Positions 20,938 to 63,696 of a DNA stretch of 64,000 nt are shown here, in pieces. The position numbers were made by a program, and so were the translations under genes. Below the pieces are notes generated by a model that was given only the letters and a program-made list of their open reading frames with translations, was not told the origin of the DNA and did not search any database. Every line of letters starts with the position of its first letter. Position 1 is the stretch's first letter. The stretch comes from Burkholderiaceae bacterium (GTDB taxonomy: Bacteria > Pseudomonadota > Gammaproteobacteria > Burkholderiales > Burkholderiaceae_E): the NCBI GenBank assembly GCA_021166725.1, contig JAJPES010000027.1, positions 37,410-101,409 on the forward strand, read 5' to 3'.

Positions 20938-22065
20938 TCAAAGCGGGACGGTGATTCCCTCGTCGTCCCCGTGGGGGAACACCGCCTCGAAGCCGAGTTC
21001 GTGCTGCAGGTCGGCCTTGCCCCACGCTTCGTTCGTCGCGCAGCGGTAGTTGAAGACCAGCTTCGGCGGTTGCACCAGTGAACGCGCGACGATGCGCTGC
21101 ACCGCTTCCTCGTCCGGATGTCCGAAGATCGCGCCGTTCGTGCTGACGAGGTAGCACGGCGAGCGCAGGAGCGACATCAGCTCGTCGGTGGTGTTCGCCT
21201 TACTGCCGTGGTGCGCGACCTTCACGGCATCGACCTCGAGCGTCTGCAGTCCTCGCTCGTCGAGCAGCCGGCGCAGCGATGCGCAGACGACGTCGGGGTG
21301 CGCGTCGGCCAGGAACAGCGCGCTCTTGCCGGCCGGCTCGAACTCGGCGAGGAACGCGATGCTCGCGCCGTTGGCGGCGGCGTTGTCGGGCCGCGACTGC
21401 TTCTCGAGCAGCGCATCGAGCTCGGGTGTGCTGCCGAGCAGGCCTTCGGCCGGCAGGTACTTCTTCTGGCGCGCCAACAGCTTCCAGGCGGCGTCGAAAT
21501 CGCCCGGATCGAGGTCGCGCACGTCCTTGCGCCAGGCATTGCGCATCCGGTCGAGCGTTGCGAGGGTGGGGGAGAGCAGCGTCAGCGACAGACCGTCGGG
21601 AAGAACCACGCACGGCAGCGGCGCGTCGTCGCGAACGACGATGGGGCCGCCGTCGAACGCGCCGTTCCACTGGCGCTCGTCGAGCCGTTGCGCGAGCAGC
21701 GCGCTGAAGAACTCTCCCTGCCGTCCGCCGAGAAGACCGTGCGCCCGCTCGAGATGCCGCCAGCCGTTGAACCAGACGTCGTGGACGACGAAGGGCCACG
21801 GCGGCGGCTCGGCGAACAGCCGCACGAGGCCATCCACATGGTCGGTGTCGACGTGCGTGAGCACGACGAGCTCGATGCGGGTATCGCCCCTCGGCAGCGA
21901 GCGCATCTGCGCGTCGAGCGCGCTCCAGGCGCCGATCGGGCCGCCGTCGATCAACACGCGGCGCGTACGCTTGCCGGTTCCGTATTCGATCCACAGGCAG
22001 TCGCCGTGCAGCGCGGGAAGCATCCGGATGCGCAGGAAGGAATCGGCGTTCGCGGCGTCGGGCAT
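20938..22065 (-). CDS. ComEC/Rec2-type metallo-beta-lactamase-fold hydrolase
   Basis: The 375-residue soluble protein has the MBL metal site H71-x-D73-x-D75-H76 (THVDTDHVDG), the form found in the ComEC C-terminal domain rather than HxHxDH. A second hallmark is KVAHHGSKANTTDELM, followed by YLVSTNGAIFGHPD. It has no membrane segments or DNA-channel domain, so it is a stand-alone hydrolase, perhaps of nucleic acid or a nucleotide. It is the last gene of a three-gene operon and starts 7 bp after the CHAT-like gene ends. Confidence 0.8.
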   Translation of the reverse strand: MPDAANADSFLRIRMLPALHGDCLWIEYGTGKRTRRVLIDGGPIGAWSALDAQMRSLPRGDTRIELVVLTHVDTDHVDGLVRLFAEPPPWPFVVHDVWFNGWRHLERAHGLLGGRQGEFFSALLAQRLDERQWNGAFDGGPIVVRDDAPLPCVVLPDGLSLTLLSPTLATLDRMRNAWRKDVRDLDPGDFDAAWKLLARQKKYLPAEGLLGSTPELDALLEKQSRPDNAAANGASIAFLAEFEPAGKSALFLADAHPDVVCASLRRLLDERGLQTLEVDAVKVAHHGSKANTTDELMSLLRSPCYLVSTNGAIFGHPDEEAVQRIVARSLVQPPKLVFNYRCATNEAWGKADLQHELGFEAVFPHGDDEGITVPL

Positions 22066-22072
22066 GGTCGGT

Positions 22073-25012
22073 TCACAGCCTCCAGTCGGCGTCGCCGAAA
22101 GCGACGATGCACAGTGCCATCGGCAGGCTCTCGAGCATCGCCTCGCGGCGCGCATCGAGGATCAGCTCGCCGAGCTGGTCGGCCTCGGCGCCGCCCGCGC
22201 GCAGCAGGCGTGCGAGGATCTTCGAGCCGACCGTGACCGCGTGCTCGCCGAACACGGTGGCGGTCGTCGAGATCACAACGGCCGCGCCCGCCTGGCGAAA
22301 GTAGCGGATGTGGTTCGAGAACGGCTCGGCGGTGCCCGCAACATCGCAGCCGAGCAGGAACACCAGCGGCGGCGGGGCGCCTTCCGGGCGAACGTAGTCG
22401 CGCGGCAGGCGCAGCGTGGCGAGGAAGTCGCCGCCGATTTCCAGCTTCAGGTCCTGGCGGCGGCCTTCGTTGTGCGGAAACGCGACGAGCAGGGCCGGCT
22501 TGCGCTGGCCGACCGTTTCCTTCCACGCCTGCCACGTCCGGGCTTCGAGTGTCGCGTCGCCGAAACGCGGCGACAGCATCGCCAGCAGCGGCGTGCGCGC
22601 GTCCTTCGGCACCTGGGCGCTGAAGCCGAGCACGGCGCAGCGGCCCAGATCGAGCCGGTCGCGGCCCTCGGCCGGCTCGGACTGGATCACCACTTCGGCA
22701 CCGTCCGGCCTGCCGAGCGCCGGGCTGTAGACGTGACGTTCGACGACCTTGCGCAGACCCCAGAATCCCATCGGGCAGACGTAGGCGGCCGGATCGGCGC
22801 GTCCGGCGCAGTCGGACGGACAACTACCGGTCTTCAGTGCTTGGCGAAAGCCGGGGCAGAGCTGGTCTGCGTCGGGCGCCGGCGGTGGGTAGTCGTAGAA
22901 GAACTCGATCGGGACGACTGCATCGGCGCGCGCACTGACGACCTGGATGTGCGTGAGCGCGTCGTCACGCGGATCGAATCCGCCGTGCGCAAGCTCGACG
23001 AACTGGTCGAGGCACAGCGCCGAGTAGAGATCGGCGCCGACGCGTGCGAGCCGCACGAGCAGTTGCGGGTTCTCGCCCTGGTCGAGTCCGTCGGCGTGAT
23101 CGGCGATGCTGTGCGCGGCGTCGGACAGCGCCTCGTTCAACTGCAGCAGCGGCTCCGAGAGGCCTTCGAGGCTGGTCGCCCAGGCGCGTCGCTCGGCGAC
23201 CGCCGTGAGCCTGGGTACGCCGTCGGTCTCGCCGTGGTTCAGCACCAGCGCCAGATCGAAGGGGCGCCGGGCGCCCAGGTCGCTCCAGTCGAAGCGCACC
23301 TGCGTTTCGTCGAGCAATGCGATGCCTTCGCCGCGCTCGTCGCGCCTTTCTCGCACCTGCGTGCGCAGTCGCGCGGTCTGCAGCACCCGACCGCGGTGCA
23401 GGACGCCGATGCGCGCATCGAAGGCGCCGCTGCTGCGTGGGGTGAAGACGAACTCGGCTTCGGTGCTCGGACCGGCGCGCGGCAGCGTGATCTCGCGCAG
23501 CATCGGCTCGTCGAACTGCCGCGCTTCGTGCACGACGATCTGCAGCGTGTGCGTATCGCGATCCTTCGGCAGCTCGTGCTCGGGAAAGGGCGTCGCAACG
23601 CTGTCCCAGCTTGCATCGTCGGGGGTGCCGATGCGCACGAGGAGCATCACCGGCTCGCCCTGTACGTAGCCGTCGTGGATCGCTTCGAGCGCATCGTCGA
23701 CCGTCTTGCGCAGGCTGCGCTGCTGCAGGTGGCGCGCCGGGCGGTGCTCGTCGTCCAGTGGACGGCTGCGCGCCGTGTGGGGAGGCGGTGTGACGGGTGG
23801 CGGAGGAGGCGGTTCCCCGGCCGGCGCCTCTTCGACGGGCGACGGAGCGGCGCGCGGTCCCTTCATGCGTTCGACCTCACGGCGCCGTTCGAACGGCCAA
23901 CCCCACCGCGCGCCGGACTTGCCCGGCGAGGTCGCGCGCGGTGGAGCACCGGGCATCGGCGCCGAGGGAGCGGTCGGGCGCATCGGCGCCGATTCCGACC
24001 GAGGAGCGGCCGGCGCTGCAGCCGAGCTCGCCTGCCGCGCCGGCGCACGTTCGCTGATCTCGATCAGCTTCGCGCCGAGCCAGGCGACGTGGCCCGGCCC
24101 GATCGAGCGCATCAGGGCGACGTCCAGTGGACATCCGCGCGCCATCTCATCGGAAAGTTTCGCCAGCGCGCTCGACAATCGCTCGGCGGGCATGGCCGGC
24201 GCGACGACGACGCCGTCTGCCTGCACCCGCGCGGCCAGCGCGCGAACGAGCGGTGCCGAGCGGGTCGGCCACTCGGAACCGAATCCGGCAACGACCGCGA
24301 GTGCGCAGCGAGGCAGCGCCGCGGCCTCGAGCACGCGTGCGAGCGCGAACGGCAACGGCTGTGCGAGTGCGAGCAGTTCGACGCGCGGCGTGCGGCGCGA
24401 GGCGATGACGAAACGCGCGCCCTGCGCAGGCCACGCGTACTTCTCCGCGATCGCGAGACGATACTTGCCGAGCGGATCGCCGGGCAGTGCCGAGACCGTG
24501 AACGGCCAGCGCCATTGCGTGGGATGTTCCGGCTTCCATCCCGACTGCACGTGCACGCCTGCGAGCTTCGCCGCGGGATGCGACAGCGCCTCGACGAAGT
24601 CGAGGACCCGTCCTTCGTGTTCGATCTCCTCCAACGCAGCGAGCCGAACGAACGACTCGCTCGCGGTGAAGCGCTCCCAGGCGTCGGCGAGAGACGCGGC
24701 GGACGGCCATTGCCGCAGCCCCGCCGGTGCCGCGCGGGCTCCGGCGGGCGCGGTCGGCACCCGCCACCCGAGAATGCCGTGCGTCGTCCACGAGTCCGCC
24801 GCGATGGTTCTCAGTAGCTCGAACAGTGCCGACGACGACTCGCCCGCTTCGGCCGCGTCGACTGCAGCGATCCGCCGCGCCCATTGCGGATCGACGGGCT
24901 GCCCGGCGACGGTGCGATCGAAGGCCGTCAGCACGCCGAGCGCGGCGAGCGCGGCGACGAAGCGCTCGTCTTCGACGCCGAGGCTCCAGGCGCCCAGGTG
25001 GTGCCGGTCCAT
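22073..25012 (-). CDS. CHAT-like (caspase-fold) peptidase, large two-part protein
   Basis: The 979-residue cytosolic protein has three parts. Residues 1-320 contain a CHAT-like end (around 235-305: LAVVAGFG, then LSDEMARGCPLDVAL) without an obvious catalytic pair. Residues 320-425 are a Pro/Ala-rich linker. Residues 430-979 end in a second CHAT-like domain with candidate catalytic H847 (LLVAFPHNEG) and C889 (LVFLLGCDVAG), then a typical helix-strand tail. A cysteine group (C719, C731, C735, C746, before GFWGLRKVVERH) could bind metal. It lies between patatin and MBL genes in one operon. Confidence 0.65.
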   Translation of the reverse strand: MDRHHLGAWSLGVEDERFVAALAALGVLTAFDRTVAGQPVDPQWARRIAAVDAAEAGESSSALFELLRTIAADSWTTHGILGWRVPTAPAGARAAPAGLRQWPSAASLADAWERFTASESFVRLAALEEIEHEGRVLDFVEALSHPAAKLAGVHVQSGWKPEHPTQWRWPFTVSALPGDPLGKYRLAIAEKYAWPAQGARFVIASRRTPRVELLALAQPLPFALARVLEAAALPRCALAVVAGFGSEWPTRSAPLVRALAARVQADGVVVAPAMPAERLSSALAKLSDEMARGCPLDVALMRSIGPGHVAWLGAKLIEISERAPARQASSAAAPAAPRSESAPMRPTAPSAPMPGAPPRATSPGKSGARWGWPFERRREVERMKGPRAAPSPVEEAPAGEPPPPPPVTPPPHTARSRPLDDEHRPARHLQQRSLRKTVDDALEAIHDGYVQGEPVMLLVRIGTPDDASWDSVATPFPEHELPKDRDTHTLQIVVHEARQFDEPMLREITLPRAGPSTEAEFVFTPRSSGAFDARIGVLHRGRVLQTARLRTQVRERRDERGEGIALLDETQVRFDWSDLGARRPFDLALVLNHGETDGVPRLTAVAERRAWATSLEGLSEPLLQLNEALSDAAHSIADHADGLDQGENPQLLVRLARVGADLYSALCLDQFVELAHGGFDPRDDALTHIQVVSARADAVVPIEFFYDYPPPAPDADQLCPGFRQALKTGSCPSDCAGRADPAAYVCPMGFWGLRKVVERHVYSPALGRPDGAEVVIQSEPAEGRDRLDLGRCAVLGFSAQVPKDARTPLLAMLSPRFGDATLEARTWQAWKETVGQRKPALLVAFPHNEGRRQDLKLEIGGDFLATLRLPRDYVRPEGAPPPLVFLLGCDVAGTAEPFSNHIRYFRQAGAAVVISTTATVFGEHAVTVGSKILARLLRAGGAEADQLGELILDARREAMLESLPMALCIVAFGDADWRL

Positions 25013-25025
25013 CCGACTGCCTGCG

Positions 25026-26135
25026 TCAGGCGAGCGCGTGCATCGGCGCTGGCAGGCCGGGAGCGGGCGACAGTGCGAGCCTCGCGCGCTGGCGCAGTGC
25101 CGCGTCGCACAGCGCGTAGCCCCAGTTCATCAGCCGGCCCTGCAGCCGCTCGTCGAAAGCGGCCAGCCTCGTCGGCACTTCGTCGAGTTCGCCGGTGATC
25201 GTGTTGTCGGCGGCCAGCGGATCGCTTGCCTCGTAGTCGCCGATTCGCGTGCCGATCCCCCAGTACGCGCCGTGCTGGCGTCCCGCCTCGAACTCCGCGA
25301 TGAGCCAGCGCTTGCGAAGCGCGCGTGCCTGGTCGATCAGGATGTCGCGCACGCGGCCCAGCTGCATCACGTTGTCTTCCCAGGGCTCTTCCTGGATGCC
25401 GAAGGGCGCGCCGGCATCGCTGACCAGGACGAGGTCGACGCGACCGACGAGCGATTCGAGCCCCATGTTGTCGTAGACGCCGCCGTCGGTAAGGACGACG
25501 CGATCGCGCAGCGCTTCGAATTCGGGCGCCTTGCTGCCGTCGCGCCACTCGCCGGGATCGGTGTCGAGGACGATCGGCGAGAACACCGGCGGGAACGCGC
25601 TCGACGCCGCCACCGCAATCGACAGCGGCACGGACTCGCTGCGGTTCGTGCCGAGCAGGTAGTCGGCAATGAAGTCCTGTCGGAAGCGGAAGCTGCGCCC
25701 GGTCTGCAGGCTCGTCGCATAGAAGACGAAGCGCGGGTTGCCGGGGCGCGACGCGTCCGGGATGTCCTTCAGCATCGCGCCGTGGAAGAGATCCTTGTCG
25801 TATCGGTGGGCGAGGAAGTCGCCTGCCGTCCTGAACGGCGTCAGCAGGCCCTTCAGTCCGGCGCCGACGTCGATCGTGCGGCCGCAGAACGCGCGCACCG
25901 GGTCGACGACCAGCGCGTCGAAGTTCGCGGCTCGACCGTCGTCGAACTGCAGGTCCTTCCAGCGATGCGCGAGCACGCCGGCGAGGATCGAGCCGCCCGA
26001 GACGCTGGTGATGCGGTCGAGCTTGCCGAGCAGTCCGGCGTCGTTGAGCCGCTGCAGCGAGCCGAGGCCGAAGAGCGTTGCACGGTACCCGCCGCCGGAC
26101 AACGCGATGCCGACCGTCTTTCCGTCGATTGCCAT
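25026..26135 (-). CDS. Patatin-like phospholipase
   Basis: The 369-residue protein has the full patatin set: the oxyanion loop GGGYRA (14-19), the nucleophile S46 in SVSGGS, and the catalytic D217 in LTDGGVYDN. An invariant-looking Pro segment (ASSAFPPVFSPI) lies between, as in this family. It has no signal peptide or membrane helix. Patatins of this type hydrolyse membrane phospholipids and serve as effectors in some anti-phage systems. It is first in the operon, with 13 bp to the CHAT-like gene. Confidence 0.88.
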   Translation of the reverse strand: MAIDGKTVGIALSGGGYRATLFGLGSLQRLNDAGLLGKLDRITSVSGGSILAGVLAHRWKDLQFDDGRAANFDALVVDPVRAFCGRTIDVGAGLKGLLTPFRTAGDFLAHRYDKDLFHGAMLKDIPDASRPGNPRFVFYATSLQTGRSFRFRQDFIADYLLGTNRSESVPLSIAVAASSAFPPVFSPIVLDTDPGEWRDGSKAPEFEALRDRVVLTDGGVYDNMGLESLVGRVDLVLVSDAGAPFGIQEEPWEDNVMQLGRVRDILIDQARALRKRWLIAEFEAGRQHGAYWGIGTRIGDYEASDPLAADNTITGELDEVPTRLAAFDERLQGRLMNWGYALCDAALRQRARLALSPAPGLPAPMHALA

Positions 26136-26235: not shown

Positions 26236-26958
26236 TCAGTTCGGCGGCGCCGGGATCGCCAGCCCTTTGGCCACCGCCGGGCGCTTCACGAAGGCGGCGA
26301 GCACGCGCGCCACCTGCGGGAAATCGTCGAAGCCGACGAGCTCGCGCGCGCCGTAGAACCCGACCAGGTTGCGTACCCACGGAAAGATCGCGATGTCGGC
26401 GATCGTGTACTCGTCGCCCATCATCCACTGGCGCCCCGCGAGGCGCTGCTCGAGCACGCGCAGCATCCGCTTCGACTCGTTCACGTAGCGGTCGCGCGGG
26501 CGTTTGTCCTCGTAGTCCTTGCCGGCGAACTTGTGGAAGAAACCCACCTGCCCGAACATCGGGCCGATGCCGCCGACCTGGAACATCAGCCACTGCAGCG
26601 TCTCGTAGCGGGCGGCCGCGCCCGAAGGCACGAAGTCCTCGCGACCGAGCGCGGCGCACTTGTCCGACAGGTAGATCAGGATGGCGCCCGATTCGAAGAG
26701 CGGCAGCGGCGTTCCGCCGGGTCCTTCGGGGTCGATGATCGCCGGGATCTTGTTGTTCGGGTTCAGCGACAGGAACTCGGGCGACAACTGATCGTCGGTC
26801 TCGAAGCTCACGCGGTGCGGCTCGTACGGCAGACCGGTTTCCTCGAGCATGATCGACGCCTTCACGCCGTTGGGCGTGGGCAGCGAATAGAGCTGGATGC
26901 GCTCGGGGTGGTGCGCGGGCCACTTCTTCGTGATCGGGAAGGCGGACAGGTCGGTCAT
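26236..26958 (-). CDS. Glutathione S-transferase, YghU/YfcG-like (Nu class)
   Basis: The 240-residue protein has an N-terminal thioredoxin-fold domain with LPTPNGVKASIMLEE, NPNNKIPAIIDPEG and FESGAILIYLSDK, the usual glutathione-site blocks of YghU/YfcG relatives, which act as disulfide-bond reductases with glutathione. The helical C-terminal domain follows, with GDEYTIADIAIFPWVRNL. It is a single gene 100 bp upstream of the patatin start on the same strand, apparently not part of that operon. Confidence 0.9.
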   Translation of the reverse strand: MTDLSAFPITKKWPAHHPERIQLYSLPTPNGVKASIMLEETGLPYEPHRVSFETDDQLSPEFLSLNPNNKIPAIIDPEGPGGTPLPLFESGAILIYLSDKCAALGREDFVPSGAAARYETLQWLMFQVGGIGPMFGQVGFFHKFAGKDYEDKRPRDRYVNESKRMLRVLEQRLAGRQWMMGDEYTIADIAIFPWVRNLVGFYGARELVGFDDFPQVARVLAAFVKRPAVAKGLAIPAPPN

Positions 26959-27579: not shown

Positions 27580-28512
27580 TCACGCTCCCGCCGGCGGAGA
27601 AACGGCCTGGGCGTAGCGCGGCGACAGCGCGTTGTGCACTGCCGTGGCCGCGATCGCGGCGTGTCCCGTCGCGACCGCGATCTGGTTCAGCGCGCTGACG
27701 ACGTCGCCGATGGCATACAGGCCGGGCACGCTGGTGTGCATGTGGCTGTCCACGTGCAGCGCGCCTTCGTCGTCGCACCGCGCGCCCAGCGACAGCGCAA
27801 GTCCGGAGCGCTGGCGGCTCCCCAGCATGGCGTAGACGACGTCGAAGGCGCGACGCCGGCCGTCGATCAGGAACGTGCAGCGTTCGCCGTCGAAGCGCAT
27901 GTCGGCAGGGACCGCGGTCGCCGCGATTCCGGTCTCGCGCAGGCGCCGGCCCTGCTGCGGATCGGTCGAAGCGTCGGTGTCGGTAGGCACGACGGTGACG
28001 CGCCCCGAATAGGTGCGCAGGAAAAGCGCGTGCCGCGCCGCCGATGCGAAGGGCCCGTGTACGGCGATGTCGCGATCGGCCGCCTCGAAGGCATCGCAGA
28101 TCGGACAGAAGCGCAGCGCCGCGCAGGCCACCGCATCCTCGAGGCCCTCGATCTGCGGCATGACGTCCTCGCAGCCGGTCGCCAGCACGACGCAGCGCGC
28201 GTCGAAACGGAATCCGTCGACGTCGAGCGCGAAGCCGTCGCCTGCGCCGCTGTGTCGCTCGATCGACGTTGCCTCGCCCGGCTCGATGCGCGCGCCGAAG
28301 CTGCGCGCCTGTGCTGCCAGGCGCGCGAGGAATGCGTCGCCGCTGATGCCGCTCGGAAAGCCGGGGCAGTTGTGGCTTTCGGGAATCCAGCGGGCGCGGC
28401 TATTGCCTGCGTCGAAAACGGCGATCGAACGGCGGAAGCGCGACAGGTAGACGGCAGCCGTGAGCCCGCCGGGGCCGGCGCCGACGATCGCGCAATCGAG
28501 CAGGACGGTCAT
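27580..28512 (-). CDS. Thioredoxin-reductase-like FAD-dependent oxidoreductase
   Basis: The 310-residue flavoprotein has the FAD motif GAGPGG (11-16), VVLATGCED near residue 110 and the second FAD motif GLYAIGDVVSALNQIAVATGHAAIAA near the C-terminus. A CxxC pair (C136-P-I-C139) stands where thioredoxin reductase has CATC. The NAD(P)H loop reads VHGPFASAA instead of GxGxxA, so pyridine nucleotide binding may be altered. The electron acceptor is unknown; no thioredoxin gene is adjacent. Confidence 0.82.
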   Translation of the reverse strand: MTVLLDCAIVGAGPGGLTAAVYLSRFRRSIAVFDAGNSRARWIPESHNCPGFPSGISGDAFLARLAAQARSFGARIEPGEATSIERHSGAGDGFALDVDGFRFDARCVVLATGCEDVMPQIEGLEDAVACAALRFCPICDAFEAADRDIAVHGPFASAARHALFLRTYSGRVTVVPTDTDASTDPQQGRRLRETGIAATAVPADMRFDGERCTFLIDGRRRAFDVVYAMLGSRQRSGLALSLGARCDDEGALHVDSHMHTSVPGLYAIGDVVSALNQIAVATGHAAIAATAVHNALSPRYAQAVSPPAGA

Positions 28513-28636
28513 CGCATGCCCGTGGCATCCGGCGTTCCCGCCCGCTCGACGCGGATCGAATGACAACGCCGCCGCGAGGGCTGCGTCCGGTCGCACTATG
28601 CTGGTGCGTGTGTACATACCGAGCAGGGGGCGAGTC

Positions 28637-29284
28637 GTGCGCACGCGGCGCTTCGTACGGGGTTCGTTACTGGCTGCGGCGCTCGCCTCGCTCGCCGCAG
28701 CCTCCTTGGCGCAACCGCTGCGCGCGATCGGCGACTGCACGATCCGCAGCGGAACGCTGTGCCCCGGAGCCGATCTGCGCCGCGCCGATCTGCACGGCGC
28801 CGATCTCTCCAATTCGCAGTTCACCAATGCGGACCTGAGCGGAGCCCGGCTCGACGATGCGAATCTGCGCGCGGCGAATCTGCGGCAGGCAAAGCTGCGC
28901 GAGGCCGACCTGCGCAACGCGGTGCTGGCCGACGCCGATCTGCTCGGCGCGCACCTGGGCGGCGCCGACCTCTCGGGCGCGGATCTATCGAATGCGAACC
29001 TGCGCGACGCCAGGCTGCCCAATGCATCGCTTCGCGGTGCGATGCTGCGGGACGCCGACCTGACCGCTGCCGAACTGCCCGGTGCGAACCTGGAAAACGC
29101 GGATCTGCGTCATGCCAGGCTGCGCGGCGCGGATCTGCGCGGCGCCTCGCTGATGGGCGCCGACCTGAGCGGGGCGGATCTGCGCAGCGCGAATCTCGTC
29201 GGAGCGAACCTGGAAGGGGCGAAGACCGACGGCGCCCGCTTCCTCGGAGCGCAGACGCAGGACTGCCGCGGCTGTCCGTCGTGA
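28637..29284 (+). CDS. Exported pentapeptide-repeat protein
   Basis: The 215-residue protein begins with a signal peptide (RRFVRGSLLAAALASLAAASLAQ) and then about 30 consecutive A(D/N)LxxA-type pentapeptides from roughly residue 45 to 200, which fold as a right-handed square beta-helix. Four cysteines flank the helix (DC, LC at the start; DCRGC at the end). The GTG at 28637 has a strong AGGGGGCGAG site upstream and gives the best signal peptide; a TATGCT -10-like box at 28597 fits a start near 28610. Function unknown. Confidence 0.8.
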   Translation: MRTRRFVRGSLLAAALASLAAASLAQPLRAIGDCTIRSGTLCPGADLRRADLHGADLSNSQFTNADLSGARLDDANLRAANLRQAKLREADLRNAVLADADLLGAHLGGADLSGADLSNANLRDARLPNASLRGAMLRDADLTAAELPGANLENADLRHARLRGADLRGASLMGADLSGADLRSANLVGANLEGAKTDGARFLGAQTQDCRGCPS

Positions 29285-58992: not shown

Positions 58993-61900
58993 ATGGATCG
59001 CGAACTTCATCCGCGCCGCAGCGATTCGCGCAGTGGCGCCTGGCGCCTTTCCTTCCGGCGGCGGTCCGGCTGCTTCGCGCGCCTGCTGGCCGCCGCATGG
59101 TTCTTCGTTTCATCGACCGCTGCGAACGGTGCCGACGGGCTTGCGGCGATCTTCGGCGGCGTGTCGTCGTCGCCGGGCACCTGCACGCCGGCCGGCGGGG
59201 CTGCGGGCGTGGGCGGCTCGCCGTTTCCGATCGGCGGGGGCATCGGCATCGGCGTTGGCGGCGGCGCGATCGCGCAGTTCGTCGCCGAAGTGGAGCGGGC
59301 CAGCCGGCCGCCGCGACCGGCGCCGGTGGGCTGCGATGCGCCGCCGCCGCGGCGCCGCGAACCGGCGAGCCTGGCGTCGTCGTCGCTCGACCGATCGGCA
59401 GGAAACCCGGTCGACGTCGTCACCGGCAACAAATACGAACGGCAGGTCGATGTCGTGCTGGCGCATCCGCAGTCGAGCGTGCTGTCGCCCGACGGCCTGG
59501 CCGATGCCTTCGGCCTGCCGCAGGACGATACGCTGAACCTGCTCGTCGCGCGGCACTACAACAGCCGCAGCGATTTCGCGTTGGCGCTCGGGCGCGGATG
59601 GAGTCACAGCTTCGAGACGAGGCTGGCGCGCATCGTGCGCGACGGTCGCGTCGAGCTGCAGATCGTCCAGGGTGATGGACGGCGCATCGTGTTTCGCCGG
59701 CAGCGCGCAACGGCGGGCCGTGCGGATGCGGGCGAAGCGCGACGCTATGCAGCACGCACGATCGACGACGGCCTGGTCGACGAGCAGCATGGCGCCGGCA
59801 CGCCGGTCGCCTACGTCTGGCGCTGGCCGGGAGGCCGGCTGTTGCATTTCGATCGCGACGGGCAGCTCGAATCGATCGTGTCCGCCGACCTCGACACGAT
59901 TCGGGTCCGTCGCGACGAGCGGGGCCGCGTCGTCGAAGTGCGCGACGACGCAGGGCGGACGATCGGCTTCGAATACGACGACACCCGGCTCGTCGCGCTG
60001 CGATTACCCGACGGACAGCGCATCCGCTACGAATTCGACGCACACCGCCAGCTCGTCGCGGTGCGCTATCCGGACGGACGCGCGCTGCGCTACGAGTACG
60101 GCGATCCGCGTGCGTTCCATCGGCTCACGTCGGTGATCGATACCGACGGAAGACGCAGCGAGTATCGATACGGCGACGATGGCCGCGTGCGGAGCTCGCG
60201 CGCCATCGGGCAGGCCGAAGGGCAGGCGCTGCGCTTCGAGTACGAGTTGCCGGCGACGGCAGGCGCACGTGGCACGACGACGGTCCGCGTCGGCGACACC
60301 GTCACGCGCTATCGCTGGCTCGACGCGAGCGGCGAGCCGATGCTCGTCGAATCCGATGGCGACGGCTGCTGGCGTTGCCCGGCGGTCGGGTCGAGGGTGC
60401 GCGTCGGTGCCGCAGGAAGCGTCGTCGCGCTGGGCGAGATGCGCATCCGCCGCGACGCGCAGGGACGCGTCGTCGAGCGCCGTGTCCCCGCGCAGGACGG
60501 GCGTGCCGCATGGTTCGAGCGCGTCTCCTATGCCGCGGGATCGCCATGGCCGACGCCGATCCGGATCGTGCGTCCGAGCGTGGTTCCCGGGCGCGAGACG
60601 CGGATCGAACTGCGCTACAACGATCGGATGCAGGTCGCCGCCGTCGAGTTCGACGGCCATCTGCCCGACGACGACGGCGCTCAGGAGTTGCGTGCGCTCG
60701 TGCGCTTCGAGTACGCCGGCTTCGACACCCGACCGGAGCGTGCCGCAGTGCGCGGTCGCCTTGCGGCGATCGTGCGCGTCTCGCCCGACGGCAGCCTGCA
60801 ACGGACCGCGTTCCGTCACGACGCACAGCGTCGCCTCGTCGGCATCGAGGCCGAAGCGACGACTTCCCATCGGATCGAGCGCGACGCGCTCGGGCGCGCA
60901 GTCGCAGAGCGCCTGCCCGACGGCGCGACGCGGCGCCGCAGCTTCGATGCGGCCTGGCGGCTGGCGAGCACGGCCGCGCGCGGAACGACGATCTCGTTCG
61001 GCTACGACGACGCAGGGAGGCCGCGGACGATCGAATGGTCCGGCGGCGAGCGATGGACGATCCGCCTCGCCGCTGCCGCGATCGAGATCGAGTCGAATCA
61101 CGGGTGGCGCGAGCGGATCGTGCCCGGCGCGAAGCGGGTAGTCGCTCCCGGCCTGCCGGTGGCGATTGCGCGCATCGAGTCGGGGCGACACGTGCTCGTC
61201 GATGCACGGGGCCGGCGAACCGAGCGCCGATACGACGATCTCGGCCGGCTCGTCGAAACGCGTTCGCCGGGCGAAGGGCGAAAACGCTATCGCTACGACG
61301 GCTTCGGGCGCCTGGCGAGCATCGCCTTCGCCGACGGCAGCGTCGATTCGCGCGAGCACGACGCGGGTGGTCGGCTGGTGCGCCGGCTGCAGCGTTCCGC
61401 CGACGACCGTGCGGAGACGACCTTCCGCTACCAAGGCGCGCAGTTGTACGCGATCGAGCACGACGGGCAGCGTTCGATCGTGCGGCACGACGACGAAGGT
61501 CGCGTCGTCGAGCGGCTCGAGACGCGCGACGGCCACGACTATCACGAGCGGCTCGAGTACGACGCGCGCGGACGGCTGGCAATGCAGATGCTCGCCGACG
61601 GCACGCGGCTGCGGCATCGCTACGACGCGCAAGGCCGCCGCGAGGCGCTCGAGCTGGCGCTCCCCAAGGCCGGTTTTCGCAGCCTGGTACGGCGCGTCGC
61701 CGGCGGCGAGCCGGACCGTATGCTGCTCGAACTGGGCAACGGTATCCGCTTCGAGCGACGCGACGACGCGGCAGGACAGCCGGTGTCGCTCGCCTGGCGG
61801 CGAAGCGGTGAAGTCCCGGACGTCATTGCCGGCGATGCGGCGCAGGCGCTGCCTTTTCGTCGATTGCACTGGGATACGGCCGGCCTGCCGTTGGCCATAG

Positions 61901-63696
61901 AACACGAGGGCGGCGAAGACCGCTACGCCTACGATCGCTTCGGGCGGCTGGTCGTGCGCGAGCGGCACGCTTCGGCCGGCGACCCGGTCGATGCGCGGCG
62001 CGCGACGCACGTCGAGTATTTCGCGCTGGATGCGCTGGGCGAACGTATCGCGGTTCGGCGCCGCGATGGCAGCGATGCGCGCGGCGCCGGCGATTCGGCG
62101 CGCGTTGCGACCGGCCTGCCCGTGCGCGTGGGCCCGCTGTCGCTGCGCTACGGTGCGCAGCGCCGCATCGTCGAGGCGCAGGGCGACGGGACGCGTGCGC
62201 GCTACCGCTACGACGCGTTCGGCCGCAGGGTCGCGAAGCGGGTCGAGCGCAGCTCGCCGCCGATCGACAACGCGAGTGCCTCCCGAGGGTTCCTGTACCG
62301 CGACCAGCGGCTCGCCGTGGAGACCGACGGCAACGGCGGGATCGTCCGGCAGTACGTGTACTGGAACGCGCAGCCGATCGCGCTGCTCGAGCACGATGGG
62401 TCCCGCACGTCGCTCGCCTGGTTGCACAACGACCATCTCGGTGCGCCGATCGCGGCAACCGACGAGGCCGCGCGCATCGTCTGGCGAGGCGAGCGCGACG
62501 CGTGGGGCGCGCTCGCCTGGCAAACCGGCCCGTTGCATCAGCCGCTGCGTCTGCCGGGGCAGTATCACGACGCGGAAACCGGCCTGCACGACAATCTGCT
62601 GCGCAGCTACGACCCGGGCGGCGGACGCTATCTCGAGCCCGATCCGCTCGGACTGGCCGCCGGATTCGATCCCTATGCGTATGCCGACGGCAACCCGCTG
62701 GTGGGCGTCGATCCGCTCGGGCTGCTGCTGTTCGCCTTCGACGGCACCGGCAACGGCGCGAGCGGCGCCGGCGGCGAGGACGTCTCGAACGTACGCAAGT
62801 TCTTCGAGGCGTCGGATGACCCCGACCGTTGGTACATGGCCGGCGTCGGTCGCGAAGACTATCCGAGCGGCATCACCGCGACACCGCTCGACTGGGCCGA
62901 GGCGCGCACCGCGCGCGACCGCGTCGACTGGATGATCGGAACGCTCGACCGCTTCCTCGACGATGCGTGGATCGGGCGGGTGGCGCCGGTGGACGTCATC
63001 GGTTTCTCGCGCGGTGCGGCAATGGCACGCGATTTCGTCAACCGCGTGGCGTCGATGATCGACGCAGGACACTTCCGCGAACGCGGTGTCTGCGTGGACC
63101 TGCGTTTCCTCGGGCTGTGGGACACCGTCGCGCAGTTCGGTTTTCTCGGACTGGCGAACCAGAACTGGCAGCTGGCGATACCGTCGACGGTGCGCGCGAC
63201 CTACCACGCCGTTGCGGTCAACGAGCACCGTACGCTGTTTCCGCTCGAATCGGCGCTCGGCAGCCCGGCGTGGGTCGTCGAGCGGGGCTTCGTCGGCAGC
63301 CATGCCGACATCGGCGGCGGCAATGCGGAGGGCGACCTTTCCGACGTGACGCTGGCCTGGATGACGCGCATGGCGCAGTCGCTCGGCGTTCCGCTGCGCG
63401 ATCTGCCGGCGCAGCACCGCGTCGTCACCGATCCGCTGGTGCACGGTCGCGACTACATCGGGAGGACCGATCGCAGCGTCTATCGGCGCGACGTGAACGG
63501 AAAGGTCGTGCAGCAGAGTTCGCAGCGCACGGCGGTGGTGCCCGGTCTCGACTGGAAGGAGTCGCTCGCGTATCTGGTGCCGTTTCCGCAGCGCGGACGC
63601 GATGCGGGCGGTTGGCCGTCGCTGGTCGGGCGCGTCGACATGCAGGCGTACGGGGCGTGGTTGAAGGACGCCTACGGCGTCGACATCCGTCGCTGA
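58993..63696 (+). CDS. RHS-repeat protein with C-terminal Tle1-like (DUF2235) lipase toxin domain
   Basis: The 1567-residue protein has an N-terminal hydrophobic segment (about 28-46), a Gly-rich stretch, a DUF6531-type block (GNPVDVVTGNKYERQ), many YD repeats, and the RHS core end (LPGQYHDAETGLHDNLLRSYDPGGGRYLEPDPLGL), closing with DPLG at 1240. Residues 1245-1567 form a DUF2235/Tle1-like domain: FDGTGN (1249-1254), nucleophile S1339 in GFSRGA, and H1437/D1439 in HADIGGG. The tail is likely delivered as a phospholipase toxin. No PAAR domain or immunity gene is visible in the window. Confidence 0.92.
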   Translation: MDRELHPRRSDSRSGAWRLSFRRRSGCFARLLAAAWFFVSSTAANGADGLAAIFGGVSSSPGTCTPAGGAAGVGGSPFPIGGGIGIGVGGGAIAQFVAEVERASRPPRPAPVGCDAPPPRRREPASLASSSLDRSAGNPVDVVTGNKYERQVDVVLAHPQSSVLSPDGLADAFGLPQDDTLNLLVARHYNSRSDFALALGRGWSHSFETRLARIVRDGRVELQIVQGDGRRIVFRRQRATAGRADAGEARRYAARTIDDGLVDEQHGAGTPVAYVWRWPGGRLLHFDRDGQLESIVSADLDTIRVRRDERGRVVEVRDDAGRTIGFEYDDTRLVALRLPDGQRIRYEFDAHRQLVAVRYPDGRALRYEYGDPRAFHRLTSVIDTDGRRSEYRYGDDGRVRSSRAIGQAEGQALRFEYELPATAGARGTTTVRVGDTVTRYRWLDASGEPMLVESDGDGCWRCPAVGSRVRVGAAGSVVALGEMRIRRDAQGRVVERRVPAQDGRAAWFERVSYAAGSPWPTPIRIVRPSVVPGRETRIELRYNDRMQVAAVEFDGHLPDDDGAQELRALVRFEYAGFDTRPERAAVRGRLAAIVRVSPDGSLQRTAFRHDAQRRLVGIEAEATTSHRIERDALGRAVAERLPDGATRRRSFDAAWRLASTAARGTTISFGYDDAGRPRTIEWSGGERWTIRLAAAAIEIESNHGWRERIVPGAKRVVAPGLPVAIARIESGRHVLVDARGRRTERRYDDLGRLVETRSPGEGRKRYRYDGFGRLASIAFADGSVDSREHDAGGRLVRRLQRSADDRAETTFRYQGAQLYAIEHDGQRSIVRHDDEGRVVERLETRDGHDYHERLEYDARGRLAMQMLADGTRLRHRYDAQGRREALELALPKAGFRSLVRRVAGGEPDRMLLELGNGIRFERRDDAAGQPVSLAWRRSGEVPDVIAGDAAQALPFRRLHWDTAGLPLAIEHEGGEDRYAYDRFGRLVVRERHASAGDPVDARRATHVEYFALDALGERIAVRRRDGSDARGAGDSARVATGLPVRVGPLSLRYGAQRRIVEAQGDGTRARYRYDAFGRRVAKRVERSSPPIDNASASRGFLYRDQRLAVETDGNGGIVRQYVYWNAQPIALLEHDGSRTSLAWLHNDHLGAPIAATDEAARIVWRGERDAWGALAWQTGPLHQPLRLPGQYHDAETGLHDNLLRSYDPGGGRYLEPDPLGLAAGFDPYAYADGNPLVGVDPLGLLLFAFDGTGNGASGAGGEDVSNVRKFFEASDDPDRWYMAGVGREDYPSGITATPLDWAEARTARDRVDWMIGTLDRFLDDAWIGRVAPVDVIGFSRGAAMARDFVNRVASMIDAGHFRERGVCVDLRFLGLWDTVAQFGFLGLANQNWQLAIPSTVRATYHAVAVNEHRTLFPLESALGSPAWVVERGFVGSHADIGGGNAEGDLSDVTLAWMTRMAQSLGVPLRDLPAQHRVVTDPLVHGRDYIGRTDRSVYRRDVNGKVVQQSSQRTAVVPGLDWKESLAYLVPFPQRGRDAGGWPSLVGRVDMQAYGAWLKDAYGVDIRR

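What the first reader, a model, noticed from the sequence alone, without database searches (positions are those of the whole stretch)
20938..26135. Patatin, CHAT-like peptidase and ComEC-type metallo-hydrolase in one operon: candidate defence system
Three genes on one strand with 13- and 7-bp gaps encode a phospholipase with intact patatin catalytic residues, a 979-residue protein ending in a CHAT-like domain with a plausible His/Cys pair, and a soluble ComEC-type MBL hydrolase. Each family is known separately as effector or processing factor in bacterial conflict systems (patatin effectors in CBASS; CHAT proteases with gasdermins or TPR proteins). I know no named system with just these three. 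A regulated protease could activate the phospholipase or the nuclease-like MBL. No sensor gene (NTPase, cyclase) is adjacent, so the trigger may lie in the N-terminal half of the CHAT protein.
Basis: partly seen in the sequence, partly recalled or inferred. Interest (0 to 1): 0.82.

Follow-up and report, generated by a model that had tools for sequence, protein, structure and literature searches.

The report
Protease, nuclease and lipase defence trio
Three adjacent bacterial genes, which recur together in the same order in other bacteria, encode a predicted caspase-like protease, a predicted DNA-cutting enzyme and a predicted membrane-lipid-cutting enzyme, and they likely form an anti-virus self-destruct system in which the protease would switch on the other two.

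Summary
The operon is real: patatin, 979-residue CHAT protein and MBL hydrolase, minus strand, 13- and 7-bp gaps. All six genome loci found with this CHAT protein keep the three genes in the same order. Structure prediction and fold searches give a caspase/CHAT/separase-like C-terminus (His847 and Cys889 in 23 of 23) and a probably degenerate caspase-like N-terminal half. The MBL resembles the defence nucleases of Lamassu, AVAST and DRT, and two stretches are lengthened relative to ComEC, with conserved glycines. This is the anatomy of 'gated' pro-nucleases, shown in 2025 to be switched on by partner trypsin-like or caspase proteases (PMC12799240). New here: a CHAT protease as partner, and a patatin as recurring third gene. 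Of 17 plasmid loci inspected with the same patatin group, 12 also hold an MBL and a caspase, subtilisin, HExxH or E2-E1-JAB gene; three of them lie beside CBASS or Hachiman. Best reading: abortive infection with protease-triggered DNA and membrane effectors. Nuclease activation is inferred by homology; patatin control is inferred from linkage; phage defence is untested; the trigger is unknown. This copy is not in a recognisable defence island.

The parts
25026..26135 (-). Patatin-like phospholipase, 369 aa; Ser46 codon 25998-26000, Asp217 codon 25485-25487
   Evidence: Pfam PF01734 57.1 bits; both residues invariant in 15 of 15
22073..25012 (-). CHAT (caspase-like) protein, 979 aa
   Evidence: 23 homologs; AlphaFold2 model and fold searches
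24038..25012 (-). N-terminal half, residues 1-325: predicted degenerate caspase-like domain, presumed sensor side (inference)
23300..23734 (-). Residues 427-571: all-beta region, probably Ig-like (inference)
   Evidence: DSSP of the model; Asf1-type weak Foldseek hits
22775..22858 (-). Residues 719-746: four-cysteine cluster, possible zinc site (inference)
   Evidence: Cys719, 735, 746 in 23 of 23 and Cys731 in 22 of 23
22076..22645 (-). Residues 790-979: CHAT catalytic domain; His847 codon 22472-22474, Cys889 codon 22346-22348
20938..22065 (-). MBL-fold hydrolase, 375 aa, of the gated defence-nuclease type
   Evidence: PADLOC LmuA 2.7e-65, Avs1a 3e-42, RTasMBL 3e-36
21838..21855 (-). HxDxDH metal-binding motif, residues 71-76
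   Evidence: Invariant in 13 of 13
21571..21765 (-). Residues 101-165: first lengthened stretch, with Gly113 and Gly117
   Evidence: 80-105 residues between His76 and Pro166 in 13 MBLs against 53-57 in 9 ComEC; glycines in 12 of 13
21373..21567 (-). Residues 167-231: second lengthened stretch, with Gly211
   Evidence: 52-67 residues against 11-13 in ComEC; Gly211 in 11 of 13
21202..21213 (-). HHGS motif, residues 285-288
   Evidence: Invariant in 13 of 13

Best explanation
The three genes likely form an abortive-infection anti-phage system in which the predicted CHAT protease, once its N-terminal half senses infection, would cut the gating stretches of the predicted MBL pro-nuclease and would also release the patatin lipase, so that cell DNA and membrane would be attacked together. 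Shown here: the operon, its conservation, the intact catalytic residues, the two lengthened MBL stretches with conserved glycines, and the recurrence of this patatin group beside other protease-MBL pairs. Predicted: the caspase fold. Inferred by homology to HamMAB, Avs1 and Canu: that the protease cleaves and activates the nuclease. Inferred from gene linkage alone: that the patatin is a second effector under the same protease. Unknown: the trigger.
For: 6 of 6 genome loci with this CHAT protein keep patatin-CHAT-MBL in order. The MBL is close to LmuA, Avs1a and RTasMBL and has two stretches longer than in 9 ComEC proteins, while a third segment hardly differs. Caspase/CHAT/separase fold with invariant His847 and Cys889. 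Published precedent for protease-gated MBL nucleases in Hachiman, AVAST and Canu (PMC12799240). Patatin and MBL groups co-occur in 3 genomes against 0.14 expected, P 1.8e-4, own genome left out, and are adjacent in each. 12 of 17 inspected plasmid patatin loci hold an MBL and a protease-type gene; one passes NCBI cut-offs for the anti-phage 6A-MBL system. Patchy presence: 2 of 18 genomes in the genus.
Against: No activity is shown. 5 of 17 plasmid patatin loci (L024, L027, L072, L076, L077) and 4 of 8 patatin genomes in the phylum sample (L050-L053, one family) have no MBL found nearby, and four plasmid CHAT-MBL loci have no patatin, so the parts can separate. No sign of a gating insertion in the patatin: Ser-Asp spacing 164-181 in 16 linked and 167-175 in 7 solitary ones. 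Gly113 and Gly117 lie in the lengthened stretch but the alignment places them opposite ComEC residues, not inside the gap. The window copy is among metabolic genes. The MBL next to the HExxH proteins is another subfamily with HxHxDH.
Confidence: 0.45

Rival explanations
1. Protease-nuclease pair with an independent patatin: the CHAT protease likely activates only the MBL, as in Canu, and the patatin is a separate effector or accessory that is not under proteolytic control.
For: CHAT-MBL occurs without patatin in 4 of 4 inspected plasmid loci; patatin occurs without MBL in 5 of 17 plasmid loci and 4 of 8 genomes; no patatin gating insertion seen.
Against: 6 of 6 genome CHAT loci keep the patatin as first gene, and the patatin group recurs beside MBLs with several protease types, more than expected for an unrelated passenger.
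Confidence: 0.33
2. A non-defence stress or lipid-turnover operon: the protease would process a hydrolase and a phospholipase for cell housekeeping.
For: The window copy lies among metabolic genes (GST, acyl-CoA thioesterase, TerC), with no recognisable defence island.
Against: Only 2 of 18 genomes of the genus and 3 of 200 of the order have the CHAT gene, own included; the MBL is of the defence type; patatin-MBL relatives lie on plasmids beside CBASS or Hachiman genes or are 6A-MBL.
Confidence: 0.08
3. The CHAT protein is a scaffold or infection-sensing switch that controls patatin and MBL by binding rather than by cutting them.
For: Its catalytic pair is assigned by conservation and fold only; no proteolysis is shown.
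Against: His847 and Cys889 are invariant in 23 of 23; the related MBLs studied elsewhere are activated with an active partner protease (PMC12799240).
Confidence: 0.1

Closest known systems
Gated MBL pro-nuclease with partner protease: HamMAB (Hachiman) and Avs1 (Tuck et al. 2025, PMC12799240; abstract, Results and Discussion read)
   Same: MBL of the LmuA/Avs1a type next to a protease; stretches lengthened relative to ComEC; no shared sensor needed between systems
   Different: Partner here is a predicted CHAT protease, not a trypsin domain fused to HamA or Avs1b; nuclease gene is downstream; a patatin is added; conserved residues in the stretches are glycines, not isoleucines
Canu (CanA caspase with Ig-like fold, CanB, CanC MBL; same paper)
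   Same: Caspase-fold protease upstream, MBL downstream, Ig-like region, conserved glycines in the MBL
   Different: One 979-residue CHAT protein instead of separate CanA and CanB; CHAT/separase-like rather than C14 caspase; patatin as first gene
6A-MBL (E2-E1-JAB protein plus MBL; NCBIfam NF058523/NF058524; row 6a of Iyer et al. 2006, PMC1779556, passages seen)
   Same: Defence-type MBL with a processing module; in L023, L096, L097 and L098 a patatin stands next to it
   Different: No E2-E1-JAB gene next to the window trio; window MBL only 31.8 bits to NF058524 (cut-off 220)
Craspase TPR-CHAT / Csx29 and SAVED-CHAT proteases
   Same: Predicted CHAT fold; regulated protease in immunity (recalled)
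   Different: No gRAMP/Cas7-11 or SAVED domain found; different N-terminal half; four-cysteine cluster
Patatin effectors of CBASS (CapV type; recalled)
   Same: Patatin as presumed membrane-attacking effector
   Different: No CD-NTase hit among the 41 window proteins scanned; the window patatin has no PADLOC match at E up to 1

Membership tests
Gated MBL pro-nuclease with partner protease | ComEC-like MBL with intact metal site | tested here: met
   HxDxDH, Asp254, HHGS in 13 of 13; LmuA 2.7e-65, Avs1a 3e-42
Gated MBL pro-nuclease with partner protease | Two insertions relative to ComEC | tested here: met
   80-105 against 53-57 and 52-67 against 11-13 residues; third segment 46-66 against 46-48. 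That they cover the active site was not modelled
Gated MBL pro-nuclease with partner protease | Conserved cleavage residue in both insertions | tested here: inconclusive
   Gly211 (11 of 13) lies inside the second gap; Gly113/117 (12 of 13) lie in the first lengthened stretch but not inside the aligned gap
Gated MBL pro-nuclease with partner protease | Partner protease cleaves the MBL and turns it into a DNase | not testable with these tools
   Needs purified proteins
Canu | Separate caspase gene canA and gene canB before the MBL gene canC | tested here: not met
   One 979-residue ORF with CHAT-type fold; no C14 caspase match in Pfam
Canu | Protease gene upstream, MBL gene downstream | tested here: met
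   6 of 6 loci
AVAST type 1 (Avs1) | Trypsin-like protease with STAND NTPase | tested here: not met
   No trypsin or NTPase match in the CHAT protein; MBL 207.6 bits to NCBIfam Avs1a, cut-off 420
6A-MBL | E2-E1-JAB protein beside an MBL above the NF058524 cut-off | tested here: not met
   MBL 31.8 bits against 220; neighbours are GST and thioesterase
Lamassu | SMC-type LmuB next to LmuA | tested here: not met
   No LmuB hit at E up to 1e-5 among 41 window proteins scanned; two ABC-ATPase-type AriA matches occur among the 58 scanned
CBASS | CD-NTase beside the effector | tested here: not met
   No cyclase hit at E up to 1e-5 among 41 window proteins
CHAT/caspase-fold proteases (clan CD) | Caspase-type fold with His then Cys | tested here: met
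   Prediction only; His847 and Cys889 in 23 of 23
CHAT/caspase-fold proteases (clan CD) | Proteolytic activity | not testable with these tools
   Needs an assay

The most novel reading that the evidence does not exclude
Patatin-protease-MBL is a general architecture of bacterial immunity: one interchangeable processing module (CHAT, caspase, subtilisin, HExxH metalloprotease or E2-E1-JAB) fires two zymogens at once, a gated nuclease and a gated phospholipase, so that one protease destroys both DNA and membrane.
Probability: 0.33. Interest if true: 0.87.

Novelty: new variant of a known kind. Interest (0 to 1): 0.72.

Why it matters
[quoted passage not shown] This operon offers a concrete candidate, a phospholipase, and a new partner protease, CHAT. 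The change of protease type around a constant patatin-plus-MBL theme makes the idea testable by comparing loci that differ only in the protease. A two-target response from one protease would parallel eukaryotic caspase cascades (recalled).

Tried and rejected
Chance adjacency: rejected (6 of 6 CHAT genome loci). Phage-borne trio: no CHAT match in the phage records at E 1e-5; in viral contigs 105 stretches matched a pattern but none encodes a relative. Plasmid-borne trio: the five plasmid records with a CHAT match are distant (27-29% identity) CHAT-MBL loci; four were inspected, without patatin; the fifth encodes a protein identical to one of the four. Empty site: five relatives without the CHAT gene were searched with the GST and thioesterase flanks. 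GST relatives are at most 50% identical; the thioesterase is in 2 of 5, but blastn shows only that gene in common apart from one 57-base match, so no empty site could be shown. Shared N-terminal half between window and plasmid CHAT types: profile comparison gave E 0.074, no match; the C-terminal halves match at E 1.8e-38. Patatin gating insertion: none seen; own-genome patatins were listed as a yardstick but not used. Control patatins: I took four at about 30% identity as expected negatives; three turned out to sit in MBL / E2-E1-JAB / patatin loci and one in a CBASS locus, so there is no clean negative control on plasmids. Literature: ten searches listed no description of this trio; bioRxiv and most subscription journals are not held and supplements could not be opened. 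PMC7159879, PMC8195603 and PMC10910872 were only searched for terms. Families absent from the VIA lists are not taken as excluded.

Full report
WHAT IS THERE. The minus strand of the window holds three tightly packed genes: a patatin-like phospholipase (25026-26135), a 979-residue protein (22073-25012) and an MBL-fold hydrolase (20938-22065), with 13- and 7-bp gaps. Upstream is a glutathione S-transferase gene (26236-26958); downstream is a convergent acyl-CoA thioesterase gene. The patatin passes its Pfam cut-off (57.1 against 27.7 bits) and keeps Ser46 and Asp217, invariant in 15 of 15 aligned relatives. The MBL keeps HxDxDH, Asp254 and HHGS, invariant in 13 of 13.

THE MBL IS OF A DEFENCE TYPE WITH A KNOWN MECHANISM. 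It matches PADLOC profiles LmuA (2.7e-65), Avs1a (3e-42) and RTasMBL (3e-36), but stays under NCBIfam's Avs1a cut-off (207.6 against 420 bits). Tuck et al. (Science 2025, PMC12799240; I read abstract, Results and Discussion) showed that such enzymes are gated pro-nucleases: two insertions relative to a ComEC-type nuclease block the active site, and cutting by a partner trypsin-like protease (HamA, Avs1b) activates them; incubation with the CanAB caspase complex turns CanC into a nuclease, and both CanC insertions hold conserved glycines. I tested the anatomy with ComEC proteins of nine genomes (own and eight relatives). The stretch from His76 to Pro166 is 80-105 residues in 13 MBLs against 53-57 in 9 ComEC; that from Pro166 to Asn232 is 52-67 against 11-13; a third segment is 46-66 against 46-48. 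Gly211 (11 of 13) lies inside the second gap. Gly113 and Gly117 (12 of 13) lie in the first lengthened stretch, though the alignment sets them opposite ComEC residues rather than inside the gap. Cleavage itself is untested.

THE TRIO TRAVELS AS A UNIT. Six distinct genome loci carry the CHAT protein: window, L002, L003, L007, L008, L009. All six have patatin upstream and MBL downstream on the same strand; the gaps run from -1 to 90 bp in the five complete ones; in L002 the patatin is cut by the contig end. Over five loci (L007 left out) pairwise identities of the three proteins rank alike (Spearman 0.87-0.94; pairs are not independent). The CHAT gene is rare: 2 of 18 genomes in the genus (the second has the coordinates of L002 and is probably the same contig), 3 of 200 in the order, 2 of 369 in the class, 1 of 398 in the phylum sample, own genome included each time. 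Flanking genes differ between loci, except that window and L002 share synteny downstream.

THE PATATIN RECURS WITH OTHER PROTEASE TYPES. In 398 phylum genomes this patatin group (E up to 1e-50) is in 8 and this MBL group (E up to 1e-30) in 9; four genomes have both, and in all four the two lie within about 3 kb. Without the own genome it is 3 against 0.14 expected, P 1.8e-4. A caution: the seed alignments came partly from linked loci. The other four patatin genomes (one family, L050-L053) show no match to my MBL or protease references nearby. On plasmids I inspected 17 of the 20 best patatin hits of 106 records (H12, H21 and H29 left out as likely duplicates). Twelve hold an MBL and a protease-type gene within the 6-7 kb fetched on each side: eight with the HExxH-type protein (L015, L016, L026, L028, L029, L073, L074 with the gene split over three ORFs, and L075, where the similarity is only 29% and the record says serine protease), two with a subtilisin (L022, L025), one with caspase-mid-MBL (L014), and one whose E2-E1-JAB protein and MBL pass NCBI's cut-offs for the anti-phage 6A-MBL system (L023: 674 and 409.5 bits). 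Five have no MBL found (L024, which has a subtilisin; L027; L072; L076; L077). Genome loci add subtilisin-MBL-patatin (L048), a patatin fragment with subtilisin and MBL (L057), patatin-MBL without a protease found at a contig end (L047), and an HExxH-type protein-MBL-patatin cluster converging on MBL-mid-caspase (L049). Four more distant patatins, meant as controls, gave three further MBL / E2-E1-JAB / patatin loci and one CBASS locus. Of the 25 examined loci with both patatin and MBL, 24 also hold a peptidase-type gene; they were found through one of the genes, so this is a description, not a rate. The HExxH protein is called a protease from its motif (checked in L015, L026, L028, L029); Pfam names no peptidase in it, its MBL partner is a different subfamily with HxHxDH, and two of these MBLs stay under their Pfam cut-off.

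SURROUNDINGS. Three patatin-MBL loci lie beside known defence genes: L015 (HamA, E 3.9e-145), L016 (DUF1837 and helicase genes, CBASS cyclase) and L029 (CBASS cyclase and SAVED gene). Patatin-less relatives lie beside HNH and Vsr nucleases and transposases (L011, L017). The window does not: 58 proteins of my own gene calls (41 window, 17 from L008 and L009 flanks) gave at E up to 1e-5 only mad3, AriA, mad8 (two members each), two phospholipase-effector models and C3a156 (one member each); the scan does not say which members.

MECHANISM. Most likely, infection is sensed through the N-terminal half of the CHAT protein; the CHAT domain becomes active and cuts the lengthened stretches of the MBL; the freed nuclease destroys DNA; and the patatin, in the same operon and perhaps also cut or released, attacks the membrane, so that the infected cell stops before phage release. 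Step status: catalytic residues, gene order and lengthened stretches shown; fold predicted; nuclease activation inferred by homology; patatin control inferred from linkage; trigger unknown.

KNOWN OR NEW. It works like Canu and the HamMAB and Avs1 pairs, but it is not Canu (no separate CanA and CanB), nor Avs1, 6A-MBL, Lamassu or CBASS by the features tested. Ten literature searches listed no description of a patatin-CHAT-MBL system or of patatin as a partner of gated nucleases. The main text of PMC12799240 has no occurrence of 'patatin', 'CHAT', 'subtilisin' or 'lipase', though it says that nuclease homologs co-occur with proteases of other diverse families; its supplements were not readable. 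The MBL beside E2-E1-JAB was described in 2006 (PMC1779556, passages seen). Verdict: new variant of a known kind.

Noticed in passing
window 58993-63693 (+): A 1567-residue RHS-repeat protein ending in a Tle1-like phospholipase domain (Pfam PF05593, PF09994), which looks like a secreted RHS effector.
   Followed up: no
window 28460-29281 (+): A 274-residue pentapeptide-repeat protein (PF00805, E 3.3e-48) overlapping a reductase-like ORF on the other strand.
   Followed up: no
L049 4815-13476: HExxH-type protein, MBL and patatin on one strand converge on an MBL-mid-caspase (Canu-like) set on the other: two protease-MBL sets share one locus.
   Followed up: partly
L018 9878-15071 (-): A 1220-residue ORF annotated as S8 peptidase also matches the HExxH-type protein (E 7e-179) and stands beside a large MBL, which suggests a fusion of two protease types.
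   Followed up: no
L023, L096, L097, L098: Four MBL / E2-E1-JAB loci carry a patatin next to them, so patatin may be a regular third gene of 6A-MBL-type systems.
   Followed up: partly
window 22775-22858 (-); plasmid CHAT proteins in L010, L012, L013: A four-cysteine cluster in the CHAT protein, conserved in the genome family and also visible in the plasmid types, hints at a structural zinc site of this CHAT subfamily.
   Followed up: partly
L008 5094-6293 (+): A second ORF with a patatin-like start lies about 1.1 kb beyond the MBL of the L008 trio; it may be the other of the two Patatin matches in the Pfam scan of 58 proteins.
   Followed up: no
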